Shown: one piece after another, positions 25,912-45,322 of the stretch
Layout of the letters: every line of letters starts with the position of its first letter
Position numbering within the stretch: the stretch's first letter is position 1
Assembly (NCBI GenBank): GCA_018824405.1
Contig: JAHJGO010000011.1
Coordinates: forward strand, 357,783 to 421,782
Source of the DNA: Gammaproteobacteria bacterium
Lineage (GTDB): Bacteria; Pseudomonadota; Gammaproteobacteria; Burkholderiales; Sulfuricellaceae
DNA length: 64,000 nucleotides
Direction: 5' to 3'
Notes under the pieces: generated by a model
The model's database searches: none
What the model was told of the DNA's origin: nothing
Seen by the model: only the letters and a program-made list of their open reading frames with translations
Program-made: the position numbers and the translations under genes

Positions 25912-27615
25912 ATGGCCAAACCTGAGAAAATACGGCTTGGCGAGGTCTTGATCCAGCAGGGTCTGCTCACGGAAGATCAGCTAAAACAGGCACTGGCCGA
26001 ACAGAAAAGCAGCGGGCGCAAGCTGGGCCGTATATTTATCGAAAATGGCTTCGTCACCGAAGAAGGCATTGCCGAGGCGATTGCGCGCCAGTTGCAGATC
26101 CCTTTCATCAATCTCAAGTTTTACAATGTCGACACAGAGCTGGTCAACAAGCTGCCTGAAACCCAGGCGCGTCGATTCCGTGCGCTGGTGTTGGAGGATA
26201 AAGGAGCAACTCTGCTGCTCGGCATGGCCGATCCTTCCGACCTGTTTGCCTACGATGAACTGGCTCGCCTGCTCAAGCGCGACATCGATCTTGCCGCCGT
26301 AGCGGAAAGCCAGTTGCTGCAAACCATCGACCGCGTGTATCGCCGCACCGACCAGATCAGTGGCCTGGCCCAGGCGCTGGAAGAAGAACTGGGCGACACC
26401 GTGGTGGATTTTGGTGGTCTCGGCGCTACTACCAATCTGGAAGAGGCGCCGGTCGTCAAACTCCTGCAGACCATGTTCGAGGACGCCACCCAGGTGCGCG
26501 CTTCCGATGTACATATCGAACCGCAGGAAGCAAAGCTGCAGATCCGTTTCCGTATTGACGGCGTGCTGCACCTGCAAACCGAGGCCGACAACAAGATTGC
26601 CGCCGCCCTGGTGCTGCGTCTCAAGCTGATGTCCGGCCTGGATATTTCCGAGAAACGCCTGCCCCAGGATGGCCGCTTCAATATCAAGGTGCGCGGGCAG
26701 TCGATCGACGTGCGTATCTCATCCATGCCCACCCAGCATGGCGAATCGGTGGTAATGCGTCTGCTCAATCAGAGTGGCGGCATTCTGACGCTAGACAAGC
26801 TGGGCATGCCGCCAGAAATGCTGGAGCGGTTCCGTAAGATTCTCCATCGCCCCAATGGCATGGTGCTGGTCACGGGGCCGACCGGTTCCGGCAAGACCAC
26901 CACCTTGTATTCCGCCCTGGCGGAACTGAACTCGATCGAGTCCAAAATTCTCACCGTTGAAGATCCGGTGGAATATCGCCTGCCCGGCATCAACCAGGTG
27001 CAGGTGAACGAAAAAATCGACCTGTCCTTCGCCCGTGTGTTGCGCTCTACGCTGCGCCAGGACCCTGACATCATCCTGGTGGGCGAAATCCGCGACCAGG
27101 AAACCGCTCAAATCGGCCTCCGGGCTGCCATGACCGGCCACATGGTGCTTTCCACCCTGCACACTAACGACGCTATCAGTACGCCTATCCGTCTCATCGA
27201 CATGGGCGTGCCACGTTTCATGGTAGCGACTTCCTTGCAGGTGGTGCTGGCTCAACGCCTGGTGCGCCTGATCTGCGAGAGTTGCACAGAAACCTATACG
27301 CTCAAGCCCTACGAACATGAGTGGATGCGCCTTGAGCTGAAGGATGCCGTGGACCAGCATTCATACAGACACGGTCGAGGCTGCACCAACTGCAACGGTA
27401 CAGGCTACCAGGGTCGCATGGGTGTTTACGAGATGCTGGAAATGAATTTCGAAATGGTCGAAGCGGCCAACCACCATGATCCGCAGCACTTCATGAAAAT
27501 GGCGCGTCAGCAGCTGGCAGGGAAAACCCTGCGCAGTCAGGCCGTGGGGGAGGTGCTCAAGGGGCGGACGACCGTGGCGGAAGCAATGCGAATCAGCAAT
27601 CAGTTTGAAGACTAG
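25912..27615 (+). CDS. mshE: MSHA pilus assembly ATPase MshE (c-di-GMP-binding)
   Basis: A 567-residue GspE/PilB-type ATPase that powers pilus extension. The N-terminal MshEN domain has two tandem copies of the c-di-GMP motif: RLGEVLIQQGLLTEDQLKQ from residue 8 and KLGRIFIENGFVTEEGIAE from about 37. Walker A GPTGSGKTT is at about 322, the Walker B region DPDIILVGEIRD at about 384, and zinc cysteines CESC and CTNC at about 455 and 491. GGAG precedes the ATG. It begins the msh locus; a four-helix gene cassette separates it from mshG. Confidence 0.95.
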   Translation: MAKPEKIRLGEVLIQQGLLTEDQLKQALAEQKSSGRKLGRIFIENGFVTEEGIAEAIARQLQIPFINLKFYNVDTELVNKLPETQARRFRALVLEDKGATLLLGMADPSDLFAYDELARLLKRDIDLAAVAESQLLQTIDRVYRRTDQISGLAQALEEELGDTVVDFGGLGATTNLEEAPVVKLLQTMFEDATQVRASDVHIEPQEAKLQIRFRIDGVLHLQTEADNKIAAALVLRLKLMSGLDISEKRLPQDGRFNIKVRGQSIDVRISSMPTQHGESVVMRLLNQSGGILTLDKLGMPPEMLERFRKILHRPNGMVLVTGPTGSGKTTTLYSALAELNSIESKILTVEDPVEYRLPGINQVQVNEKIDLSFARVLRSTLRQDPDIILVGEIRDQETAQIGLRAAMTGHMVLSTLHTNDAISTPIRLIDMGVPRFMVATSLQVVLAQRLVRLICESCTETYTLKPYEHEWMRLELKDAVDQHSYRHGRGCTNCNGTGYQGRMGVYEMLEMNFEMVEAANHHDPQHFMKMARQQLAGKTLRSQAVGEVLKGRTTVAEAMRISNQFED

Positions 27616-27618
27616 GCG

Positions 27619-27645
27619 TTAGCTTTCAGCCTTCAGCGGTCAGCT
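27619..27645 (+). repeat. Left inverted repeat of the four-helix cassette
   Basis: It begins 4 bases after the mshE stop codon. The units AGCTTTC, AGCCTTC and AGCGGTC repeat at 7-base steps from 27621, with a partial fourth unit after 27641. Confidence 0.8.
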
Positions 27646-27660
27646 TCTGGTGGGGGCTGA

Positions 27661-28020
27661 GTGAGGGATTTTCGTGATCTTGCAGTTTGGGGTAAGGCGC
27701 ACCAGTTGACGCTGGCTGTATATCGGGAAACGAGCACTTTCCTCGTTGCCGAGATATATGGATTGACCAGCCAGGCGCGGCGTGTTGCTGCTTCTGTTCC
27801 GGCGAATATTGCCGAGGGCTGCGGAAGAAATGGAGGCGCTGATTTTGCGCGATTTCTCCAAATTGCGTTGGGTTCAGCAAGTGAACTCGAATACCATTTG
27901 TTGCTAGCGCGTGACTTGGGATATTTGAACGTTGCACGTCACGAAACCATGCAAGTCGATACTGTGGAAGTGAAGAAAATGCTTACATCCTTGATTCAAA
28001 AGCTGAGAGCTGATAACTGA
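27661..28020 (+). CDS. Four-helix-bundle protein (23S rRNA intervening-sequence family)
   Basis: A 119-residue helical protein of the S23/IVP-type four-helix-bundle family (TIGR02436-like). Hallmarks are FRDLAVWGKAHQL near the start, LTSQARRVAASVPANIAEG at about residues 36-54 and the ending pattern SASELEYHLLLARDLGYL. The start is GTG at 27661 after a G-rich run. Its last codons (Lys-Leu-Arg-Ala-Asp-Asn and stop) lie inside the right-hand repeat, so gene and repeat are physically one unit. No function is established for the family. It has no evident link to pilus assembly. Confidence 0.88.
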   Translation: MRDFRDLAVWGKAHQLTLAVYRETSTFLVAEIYGLTSQARRVAASVPANIAEGCGRNGGADFARFLQIALGSASELEYHLLLARDLGYLNVARHETMQVDTVEVKKMLTSLIQKLRADN

Positions 28021-28034
28021 TGGCTGAAAACTAA
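28008..28034 (-). repeat. Right inverted repeat of the four-helix cassette
   Basis: Units AGCTGAT, AACTGAT and GGCTGAA run at 7-base steps, inverted relative to the left copy; a further unit AGCTGAG lies at 28001-28007. It contains the stop codon of the four-helix gene and ends 2 bases before the mshG ATG. Confidence 0.8.
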
Positions 28035-28036
28035 AC

Positions 28037-29266
28037 ATGCCATTTTTTTCCTACAAAGCCCGAAATGCCCGCGGCGACCTGATCGAGGGTATACAGGAAG
28101 GCCCGGATAGTGCGGCGATAGCTGACATGCTGTTCAATGGCGGGATGACGCCTGTCGAGATCAGCGTTTCCGCCAAAGGGCCGGGCGCGCAGGGCGAAGG
28201 CCTGCTGCAGCGCCTGCAGCAGCAGAAGATTACGGCCATCGATGTCATGCTGTTCTCGCGCCAGATGTATACGCTGCTCAAGGCTGGTGTGCCCATCATG
28301 CGCGCCCTGGCTGGCTTGCAGGAGTCGACGCATAACAACAGCATGAAGAAAGTGCTGCGGGATATGCGCGAGAGCCTGGACAGCGGGCGCGAGCTTTCGG
28401 CCGCGATGCGGCAACATCCCGAAGTGTTCAGCCCGTTTTACATCAGCATGGTGCGGGTGGGCGAGGCGACCGGCATGCTGGAGGAAATTTTCCTGCGCCT
28501 GTTCCATTACATCGAATTCGAGAAATCGACCAAGGACAAGATCAAGGCGGCAATGCGCTATCCCACATTCGTCGTCATTGCAATGGCCGTGGCGATGGCT
28601 ATTATCAATCTGTTTGTGATCCCGGCTTTTGCCAAGGTGTACAAGGGATTCAATGCCGAATTGCCGATGATGACCAAGATACTGATTGCCAGTTCGGATT
28701 TTACCGTGCAGTACTGGCCGCTCATGCTCATGCTTCTGGCGGGAGCGTTTTACGGTTTTCGGCTGTATGTTGCCACCCCCGTGGGGCGATACTGGTGGGA
28801 CAGACTCAAGTTGCGCCTGCCGGTGGTGGGAAGCATTATCGAGAAGGCCACGCTCTCGCGCTTTGCCCGCAGTTATGCGCTCACCAGTCGCAGCGGCATA
28901 CCCATTGTGCAGGGCCTGAACGTTGTGGCACAGGTTGTGGACAACGATTTCATCGCCAAGAAAATTGACAATATCCGCGAAGGGGTGGAGCGTGGCGACA
29001 GTATTTTGCGAACCGCCTCGGCTTCAGGCGTGTTCACTCCAGTGGTGCTGCAAATGGTCGCGGTAGGCGAGGAAACCGGCGAACTGGACGATCTGATGCA
29101 GGAAATCGCTGAAATGTACGAGCGCGAGGTGGCGTACGAAGTGGACAACCTGTCCGCCAAGATCGAACCCATCCTGATTGTCGGCCTGGGGGTTCTGGTG
29201 CTGATTCTGGCGCTGGGCGTATTCCTGCCGATATGGGATCTGGGCAAAGCGGCACTGCCCAGGTGA
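28037..29266 (+). CDS. mshG: MSHA pilus inner-membrane platform protein MshG
   Basis: A 409-residue GspF/PilC-family protein with two T2SSF domains (about residues 70-190 and 270-395) and three membrane segments (about 170-190, 220-240 and 378-398). It forms the platform on which MshE acts. The two glycine-glutamate motifs VRVGEATGML and VAVGEETGEL mark the duplicated domains. The ATG at 28037 follows directly on the cassette's right repeat and has no recognisable Shine-Dalgarno, perhaps because the insertion displaced it. It overlaps the next prepilin gene by 4 bases. Confidence 0.95.
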   Translation: MPFFSYKARNARGDLIEGIQEGPDSAAIADMLFNGGMTPVEISVSAKGPGAQGEGLLQRLQQQKITAIDVMLFSRQMYTLLKAGVPIMRALAGLQESTHNNSMKKVLRDMRESLDSGRELSAAMRQHPEVFSPFYISMVRVGEATGMLEEIFLRLFHYIEFEKSTKDKIKAAMRYPTFVVIAMAVAMAIINLFVIPAFAKVYKGFNAELPMMTKILIASSDFTVQYWPLMLMLLAGAFYGFRLYVATPVGRYWWDRLKLRLPVVGSIIEKATLSRFARSYALTSRSGIPIVQGLNVVAQVVDNDFIAKKIDNIREGVERGDSILRTASASGVFTPVVLQMVAVGEETGELDDLMQEIAEMYEREVAYEVDNLSAKIEPILIVGLGVLVLILALGVFLPIWDLGKAALPR

Positions 29267-44190: not shown

Positions 44191-45264
44191 ATGAGTCTGA
44201 TCAATCAAATGCTGCAGGATTTAGAGCAGCGCAAGCTCAATGAGGGCGCAACTGCCGCGCAGATACGTGCAGTAGGCAAGCCTGGTGGGTGGTCGGCAAG
44301 GTCTTGGGGATGGTTGTTTTTTATTCTGCTGGCCGTGGCCGCTGGCACGGCTTTCTGGATTTTTGGCGTGCCGGCTGAACAAGCCATGCAGCCAACCCCG
44401 TCCCCCACAATAGTGAGCGCGCCGCCAGTGGCAGCCCCGGAACCAGTACCTCAGATTGAGGAAACGCCATCAGTGATGCAACTGGCTTCCGAGCTGAGCT
44501 TCGTGCCATCCTCTCCGCCTGCTGGGCAGGAAATCAAAGTCGCTCCACCCGCCGTGCTTGCCCCGGTAAAACAGGAGGCTTCACCGTCCCCTGTGCTTGA
44601 AAAGCCGCAACCGGTCGTGGCCGAGATAAAAAGACCAGCTGTTGCAGTAGAGGCGCCCCAGCCAGCCGATATCAGCAAGGAAATTCGCCAGCCCAACCCG
44701 CATCAAAGAGCCGAAAATTTGTATCGGCAAGCGTATGCCAGTCTGCAGCAGGGTCGTATGGGCGAAGCGGAAGAGAGTTTGCGCCAAGCGCTTCAACTTG
44801 AACCGCGTCATGCCGCCGCGCGGCAGGCGCTGGCCGCGCTGCTGGTGGAATCGCGCCGCCTGGATCGCGCCGAACAAGTGTTGCAGCAAGGTTTGGAGCT
44901 GCAACCGGGAAATACCGGTTATGTCATGATGCTGGCGCGGATTCAGGTTGAACGAGGTGACGCGGCAACGGCCCTGTCGACCTTGCAACGCAATGCCCCG
45001 GCCAGTGAAAGCGCGGAATATCACGGCTTCTTGGCCGCATTGTTGCAGCGCAGCGAGCGTCACAAGGAAGCCATCGATCATTACCTTGTTGCACTGCGCG
45101 CCAACTCCACAGCCGGACCCTGGCTGCTGGGTCTGGGGATTTCGCTGCAAGCAGACGGCCAGGCAGGCAAGGCTGCTGAAATCTTCCGCCGCGCCCGCCA
45201 GAGCGACTCCCTGTCTCCGGAATTACGGGCATTTGCAGAGCAGAGGCTGAAGCAACTGCAATAA
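44191..45264 (+). CDS. mshN: MSHA biogenesis protein MshN (TPR protein)
   Basis: A 357-residue bitopic protein: cytoplasmic MSLINQMLQDLEQRK motif, a membrane segment (about 35-55), a Pro/Val-rich linker (about 65-165) and a TPR region (about 170-355: AENLYRQAYASLQQGRMGEAEESLRQAL and repeats). The N-terminal motif also occurs in GspB/ExeB-type partners of ExeA, so a complex with MshM is likely. It is the last msh gene; a heptad hairpin begins at the base after its stop codon. Confidence 0.9.
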   Translation: MSLINQMLQDLEQRKLNEGATAAQIRAVGKPGGWSARSWGWLFFILLAVAAGTAFWIFGVPAEQAMQPTPSPTIVSAPPVAAPEPVPQIEETPSVMQLASELSFVPSSPPAGQEIKVAPPAVLAPVKQEASPSPVLEKPQPVVAEIKRPAVAVEAPQPADISKEIRQPNPHQRAENLYRQAYASLQQGRMGEAEESLRQALQLEPRHAAARQALAALLVESRRLDRAEQVLQQGLELQPGNTGYVMMLARIQVERGDAATALSTLQRNAPASESAEYHGFLAALLQRSERHKEAIDHYLVALRANSTAGPWLLGLGISLQADGQAGKAAEIFRRARQSDSLSPELRAFAEQRLKQLQ

Positions 45265-45322
45265 AGCTATCAGCGGTCAGCAAGAGCAAGCTGGTTTGGC
45301 TGAAGACTGACAGCTGACAACT
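45265..45322. repeat. Gene-less heptad hairpin between mshN and comF
   Basis: 17-base arms 45265-45281 and 45306-45322 form an imperfect inverted repeat (13 of 17 pairs) made of the 7-bp units found around the four-helix cassette (ATCAGCG, GTCAGC; reversed CTGACAG). It starts right after the mshN stop and its right arm reaches into the comF stop codon. It may also act as a terminator for the two converging operons. Confidence 0.75.

What the first reader, a model, noticed from the sequence alone, without database searches (positions are those of the whole stretch)
27619..28034. Gene cassette with heptad terminal inverted repeats between mshE and mshG
The two ends are 27-bp inverted repeats (22/27 identical) composed of 7-bp units, and they sit 3 bases from the mshE stop and 2 bases from the mshG start. 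The right repeat encodes the end of the four-helix-bundle protein, so gene and repeat form one unit. mshE and mshG are normally adjacent, so this looks like a clean insertion of a small element without a transposase. Such a unit could move with help from an outside enzyme or through the four-helix protein itself.
Basis: partly seen in the sequence, partly recalled or inferred. Interest (0 to 1): 0.8.

Follow-up and report, generated by a model that had tools for sequence, protein, structure and literature searches.

The report
Transposase-less mobile four-helix-protein gene cassette
A tiny gene wrapped in mirror-image arrays of a 7-letter DNA word has slipped between two pilus genes; the same gene-plus-heptads unit, each with its own matching word, occurs across some 18 bacterial and archaeal phyla and inside ribosomal RNA genes, which points to a widespread, little-noticed kind of mobile element with no known moving enzyme.

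Summary
The 416-bp unit between mshE and mshG has 27-bp inverted ends (22/27) built from heptads TCAGCNN and encodes a PF05635 four-helix protein (IVP), the protein of 23S rRNA intervening sequences (IVS). It is a mobile cassette: some relatives have an empty 8-bp spacer, others a different IVP element, or an unrelated GxxExxY gene with 9-bp-unit ends, at the same spot. About 19 gene-less sites with the same heptads lie elsewhere in the genome, nearly all in operon spacers; four of five spacers compared are empty in some relative. Of 113 IVP genes from about 18 phyla, 52-64% have period-7 repeats beside them (controls 0-3%) and 70% matching inverted flanks (controls 1-3%). The heptad word differs between elements, agrees between the arms of one element, and tracks the protein rather than host phylum. 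An IVP inside Azospirillum 23S rRNA has the same anatomy, so rRNA IVS and operon elements look like one family. The IVP gene is under purifying selection and has the Avd fold. No transposase or reverse transcriptase found explains movement. I infer that the IVP pentamer reads the heptad hairpin and that insertion is linked to transcription; that is untested.

The parts
27619..27645 (+). left terminal inverted repeat, heptads TTAGCTT-TCAGCCT-TCAGCGG-TCAGC
   Evidence: sequence; 22/27 complementary to right arm; the same heptad triplet at about 20 places in this genome, reversed control 0
27661..28020 (+). four-helix-bundle protein gene (PF05635 23S_rRNA_IVP / TIGR02436), GTG start, 119 aa
   Evidence: dN/dS 0.21 against the G005 orthologue; fold as 2gsc and Avd
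28008..28034 (+). right terminal inverted repeat, heptads in reverse complement (GCTGANN); encodes the last codons of the protein
27619..28034 (+). whole mobile unit; folds as one long hairpin (RNA z = -3.6); empty site in G001 and G002
25912..27615 (+). mshE, left host gene
28037..29266 (+). mshG, right host gene
45264..45322 (.). gene-less hairpin of the same heptad family, just after a stop codon; likely a satellite of the same element

Best explanation
This is an intervening-sequence (IVS) type mobile element sitting in a messenger-RNA operon instead of in 23S rRNA. It is one unit: left heptad array, gene for the IVP four-helix protein, inverted heptad array. Shown: the unit is present or absent between relatives; it occurs in many phyla with the heptad word matched to the protein lineage; the same genome holds gene-less hairpin copies; the protein is conserved by selection. 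Inferred: the IVP pentamer binds its own heptads in the folded hairpin (RNA or single-stranded DNA) and so carries itself and gene-less copies to new places in transcribed DNA, host enzymes doing the cutting and joining. Also inferred: after insertion the transcript's stem-loop can be removed by RNase III, as in rRNA IVS, and the heptads supply start and stop signals, so that the operon keeps working and the insertion is tolerated.
For: Empty and filled sites at mshE-mshG and four other spacers. About 20 heptad sites in the genome, reversed control 0; gene-less hairpins fold far better than shuffles, z -3.4 to -8.5; 17 of 18 sites lie in spacers and, by reading, all 17 between co-directional genes. 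113 IVP loci: period 7 at 52%/64% of flanks against 3%/0% distal control; inverted flanks 70% against 3%/1%. The two arms of one element match (0.16 against 0.51 between elements) and heptads track protein distance, r 0.37, 0 of 2000 permutations; for pairs from different phyla only, r 0.35, 0 of 2000. At least 4 TCAGC cores in 13 of 24 loci whose protein is at least 52% identical to this one, in several phyla, and in 0 of 110 others. An IVP inside 23S rRNA of Azospirillum has GACRGAN inverted heptads; the Coxiella IVS has tandem GACAGAT heptads and RNase III excision (PMC4990558). IVP gene sense to its neighbours in 147 of 154 calls. dN/dS 0.04-0.21. GxxExxY genes: same anatomy with unit 9 or 10, never 7, so repeat period goes with the encoded protein. 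Avd fold.
Against: No movement was observed, no target duplication found, no integrase identified. G002 and G007 carry many TCAGC hairpins but no PF05635 gene, so hairpins persist without it. Coding on the sense strand and operon location can also result from selection. IVPs at a given spacer are often each other's nearest relatives within the order, so many elements are inherited for long times and movement must be rare. The NN letters of the two arms do not match beyond chance, so pairing is only partly selected.
Confidence: 0.6

Rival explanations
1. Retro-movement: the element's RNA is copied back into DNA by a reverse transcriptase working in trans, with IVP playing the part that Avd plays beside the reverse transcriptase of diversity-generating retroelements.
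For: IVP has the Avd fold, TM about 0.8 to 4dwl and to the DGR ribonucleoprotein; homology of PF05635 and Avd already noted in PMC10053308; sense orientation and rRNA/operon locations suit an RNA route.
Against: No RVT_1 in G000, nor in G002, G005, G006, G007, although G005 is a complete genome with 126 heptad-triplet matches. The helper would have to be in another host or be lost.
Confidence: 0.2
2. DNA MITE moved in trans by a host transposase, for example a Y1/RAYT enzyme that recognises hairpins, the IVP gene being a passenger.
For: Gene-less hairpins with inverted ends resemble REPIN and MITE elements; Y1_Tnp genes exist in G000 and in 12 of 14 relatives.
Against: The two Y1 genes of G000 lie on contigs without heptad sites; G006 and G013 have IVP elements but no Y1; no target duplication; the heptad word tracks the IVP protein, which a passenger would not explain.
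Confidence: 0.13
3. A domesticated regulatory device: the hairpins are post-transcriptional control sites of operons and IVP is the RNA-binding regulator.
For: Location in operon spacers next to stop and start codons, strong hairpins, purifying selection; a regulatory role was proposed for TAACTGA heptads (PMC4679880).
Against: Presence differs among close relatives at the same spacer and different words or the GxxExxY unit replace each other; the unit also sits in 23S rRNA; in most IVP loci the heptads are around the gene itself.
Confidence: 0.12
4. Not mobile: heptads grow by replication slippage next to old genes, and the gene-repeat link is chance.
For: Heptamers are the commonest 5-11 nt repeats in bacteria (cited in PMC4679880); some arrays are perfect and long (L165, L248).
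Against: Slippage does not make inverted arrays on both sides of one gene family in many phyla, nor empty sites, nor copies with variable NN letters.
Confidence: 0.03

Closest known systems
23S rRNA intervening sequences (IVS) with the S23p/IVP ORF (Leptospira, Coxiella, Brucella)
   Same: Same protein family, similar size (Coxiella 428 nt), inverted ends forming a long stem, tandem heptads beside the ORF (GACAGAT in Coxiella, PMC4990558); the Azospirillum 23S copy read here has inverted heptads on both sides
   Different: Here the unit lies in a protein operon, carries another heptad word, and the genome holds gene-less copies; RNase III processing not shown
Heptamer repeats of Xanthomonas and Nostoc (GGGANTN; PMC4692102) and of Beggiatoaceae (TAACTGA; PMC4679880)
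   Same: 7-bp units with some free letters, intergenic, often in inverted pairs (70 pairs in X. campestris)
   Different: Those reports name no gene and no mechanism; the passages searched do not mention IVP. That they belong to IVP elements is a prediction, not tested here
REPIN/RAYT elements
   Same: Short hairpins from inverted units, many per genome, mobilised in trans
   Different: RAYT is a Y1 enzyme; here the linked gene is a four-helix protein without known catalytic activity, and the units are tandem heptads
Avd of diversity-generating retroelements
   Same: Same fold and probably pentamer
   Different: No reverse transcriptase or template/variable repeat with the element; no RVT_1 in this genome
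GxxExxY (PDDEXK_3) gene units
   Same: Small gene flanked by inverted tandem repeats, including at the very same mshE-mshG spacer
   Different: Unrelated, nuclease-fold protein; repeat unit 9 or 10 bp, never 7

Membership tests
IVS element (rRNA intervening sequence) | Encodes PF05635 IVP protein | tested here: met
   E 4.9e-35, above cut-off
IVS element (rRNA intervening sequence) | Complementary ends forming a long terminal stem | tested here: met
   22/27 arms; fold z -3.6, ends paired
IVS element (rRNA intervening sequence) | Lies within an rRNA gene | tested here: not met
   between mshE and mshG; the related unit L249 does lie in 23S rRNA
IVS element (rRNA intervening sequence) | Excised from the transcript by RNase III without ligation | not testable with these tools
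   needs RNA work
MITE / DNA transposon with target duplication | Target-site duplication | tested here: not met
   none seen at six spacers, within the limits of short divergent spacers
REPIN-RAYT | Cognate Y1 transposase flanked by the same repeats | tested here: not met
   Y1 genes on contigs without heptads; G006 and G013 lack Y1
DGR with Avd | Reverse transcriptase in the locus or genome | tested here: not met
   no RVT_1 in G000
DGR with Avd | Avd fold | tested here: met
   TM about 0.8 to 4dwl and 8ub7, Foldseek E 0.04-0.16, probability 1.0

The most novel reading that the evidence does not exclude
A categorically new class of mobile elements: a small protein without transposase or polymerase activity reads a tandem, fixed-period repeat code in the hairpin ends of its own gene (7 bp for IVP, 9-10 bp for GxxExxY) and thereby spreads itself and gene-less copies; rRNA IVS, cyanobacterial and Xanthomonas heptamers and the TAACTGA repeats are all products of it.
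Probability: 0.35. Interest if true: 0.92.

Novelty: new variant of a known kind. Interest (0 to 1): 0.83.

Why it matters
If right, it gives one origin to several unexplained things: what the orphan IVP/S23 protein family is for, how rRNA intervening sequences spread, and why 7-bp repeats outnumber other 5-11 bp repeats in bacterial genomes. It also supplies testable protein-repeat pairs in many phyla and a second family (GxxExxY) with another repeat period as a built-in control.

Tried and rejected
Rfam on 40 IVP loci: none in rRNA. NN letters of the two arms as a sign of fold-back copying: no excess match, 375 of 1000 shuffles as high. Y1 and reverse transcriptase as movers: not consistently present. 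Anti-phage defence: no PADLOC hit. Phage records: no IVP match; 34 IMG/VR contigs hold a relative but were not studied. One origin of all mshE-mshG elements: five rows fall apart in the tree (0% of bootstraps together) but the AU test is borderline, p 0.057, so independent insertion is likely, not proven. My automatic neighbour-strand caller left many cases undecided and miscalled some sites, which I corrected by reading. Literature linking IVP genes with heptads outside rRNA: none; subscription papers are not covered.

Full report
What is there. Between mshE (25912-27615) and mshG (28037-29266) lies a unit of 416 bp, 27619-28034. Its ends are 27-bp inverted repeats, 22 of 27 paired, made of heptads: left TTAGCTT TCAGCCT TCAGCGG TCAGC, right the reverse complement with TCAGC, TCAGT and TTAGT cores. 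An ORF of 119 aa, 27661-28020, fills the middle and ends in the right repeat. It is PF05635 (23S rRNA-intervening sequence protein, E 4.9e-35) and TIGR02436. Chance does not make this: inverted matches of 22/27 are absent from five shuffled windows, and the heptad pair pattern occurs 4 times against 0.24 expected.

It is an insertion. In the same genus G001 and G002 have only about 8 bp between the mshE stop and the mshG start, and many more distant genomes have a similarly short gap. G005 has the orthologous element (84% DNA). G004 and G003 have a diverged IVP element with the same heptads (G003's gene has lost an internal stretch), G018 one with TCAGT heptads, and the Methylobacillus locus L083 again one between mshE and mshG. 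In a tree these IVPs are interleaved with IVPs from other phyla, though one origin is not firmly rejected (p-AU 0.057). G006 and G007 carry an unrelated GxxExxY gene there, flanked by CCCCGTG-type repeats.

The genome holds gene-less relatives. The triplet TCAGCNNTCAGCNNTCAGC has 56 matches with up to one mismatch in about 20 places, reversed control 0. Most are hairpins of about 60-90 bp without a gene, folding 3.4 to 8.5 standard deviations better than shuffles (ten tested). Seventeen of 18 sites examined lie in spacers a few bases from a stop codon or start codon, and by reading their neighbours all 17 are between co-directional genes; one lies inside a long ORF. At five spacers relatives were compared: those before hscB and between gspE-gspF, fabH-fabD and purH-purD are empty in some relatives; the same spacers can hold hairpins of a different word in others (G006 and G007 at hslV-hslU, G006 at fabH-fabD). 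Gene names here are my reading of the sequence. No target duplication is visible, but spacers are short and diverged.

It is general. In 113 IVP loci, 33 from this bacterial order and 80 named ones from about 18 phyla including archaea, period-7 runs lie upstream in 52% and downstream in 64%, against 3% and 0% in regions some 450-700 bp away; periods 8 and 9 are rare, and 14 is the multiple of 7; matching inverted flanks occur in 70% against 3% with exchanged partners and 1% in distal controls. The heptad word varies (TCAGCNN, CTCACGC, CCCCTAG, TCAATCC, GTGACRA and more), but the two arms of one element agree as reverse complements (distance 0.16 against 0.51; direct orientation 0.50). Words follow protein similarity (Mantel r 0.37, 0 of 2000), also for pairs from different phyla alone (r 0.35, 0 of 2000), and at equal protein distance being in the same phylum makes little or no difference. 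The 80 named loci are the nearest relatives that the scan returned, so they are not a random sample.

rRNA IVS belong here. In a plasmid of Azospirillum lipoferum an IVP lies inside 23S rRNA (RF02541) with GACRGAN heptads upstream and inverted heptads downstream. For the Coxiella IVS, heptads GACAGAT, a 28-bp stem and RNase III cleavage are published (PMC4990558). The published view was that such elements may be transposition remnants; operon copies and gene-less satellites were not described in what I could search.

A second family is a control. Of 28 GxxExxY (PF13366) loci in relatives, 86% have inverted flanks (0% distal, 14% exchanged), with unit 9 or 10 and never 7. Two unrelated genes with the same anatomy and some of the same spacers, but different periods, suggest that the encoded protein sets or reads the repeat.

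The protein. AlphaFold2 gives a confident four-helix bundle (pLDDT 96.5); nearest structures are 2gsc (a homopentamer according to PMC4990558; TM 0.93), 2rld, then Avd (4dwl) and the DGR ribonucleoprotein (TM about 0.8). dN/dS is 0.04-0.21 in seven pairs, so the protein is used. Its gene runs with its neighbours in 147 of 154 calls.

How it works. Shown: insertion, spread, word-protein matching, selection on the protein. Inferred: binding of the heptads by IVP, movement through a hairpin form at transcribed places, tolerance by RNase III trimming and by start/stop codons in the heptads (for example IVP stop overlapping the next start, L165, L168, L172). Against IVP as sole mover: G002 and G007 have many hairpins and no IVP gene. 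Against known movers: no RVT_1 in G000, G002, G005, G006, G007, no Y1 in G006 and G013, and no heptads on the contigs of the two Y1 genes of G000.

Known and new. Known: the IVP family, rRNA IVS, heptads in one IVS, Avd homology (PMC10053308), IVP genes in cas loci (PMC3936711; seen here between cas6 and cas4), heptamer repeats without a gene (PMC4692102, PMC4679880). New as far as the searched library shows: the cassette anatomy outside rRNA in many phyla, word-protein matching, gene-less satellites with empty sites, and the parallel GxxExxY class. I file it as a new variant of the IVS kind; the criterion of lying in rRNA is not met, so it is IVS-like by protein and anatomy rather than an IVS in the strict sense.

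Noticed in passing
L022 and L023 (mshE-mshG of G007, G006); L216-L244: GxxExxY (PF13366) genes flanked by inverted tandem repeats of 9 or 10 bp: a second cassette family, with a gene-less hairpin of the same kind at hslV-hslU of G007.
   Followed up: partly
window 45264-45322: Gene-less TCAGC heptad hairpin directly after a stop codon.
   Followed up: yes
L052 near 1465-1491 (G000:C19:71765-71790): Heptad array inside a long open reading frame, apparently in frame.
   Followed up: no
L165, L168, L169, L172, L181: The right heptads seem to form the N-terminus of the next gene (rfbA-like), whose start codon overlaps the IVP stop (ATGA).
   Followed up: no
L245 and L248: IVP genes between cas6 and cas4 on cyanobacterial plasmids, with long repeat arrays upstream.
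   Followed up: partly
G012, G013, G014, G021: Long direct arrays of TCAGCAC, unlike the hairpins with variable NN letters; possibly another type.
   Followed up: no
L059: An IVP gene with inverted repeats of period 9 (ACATTCACG) instead of 7.
   Followed up: no
L250-L283: 34 IMG/VR contigs encode IVP relatives; not checked whether they are truly viral.
   Followed up: no
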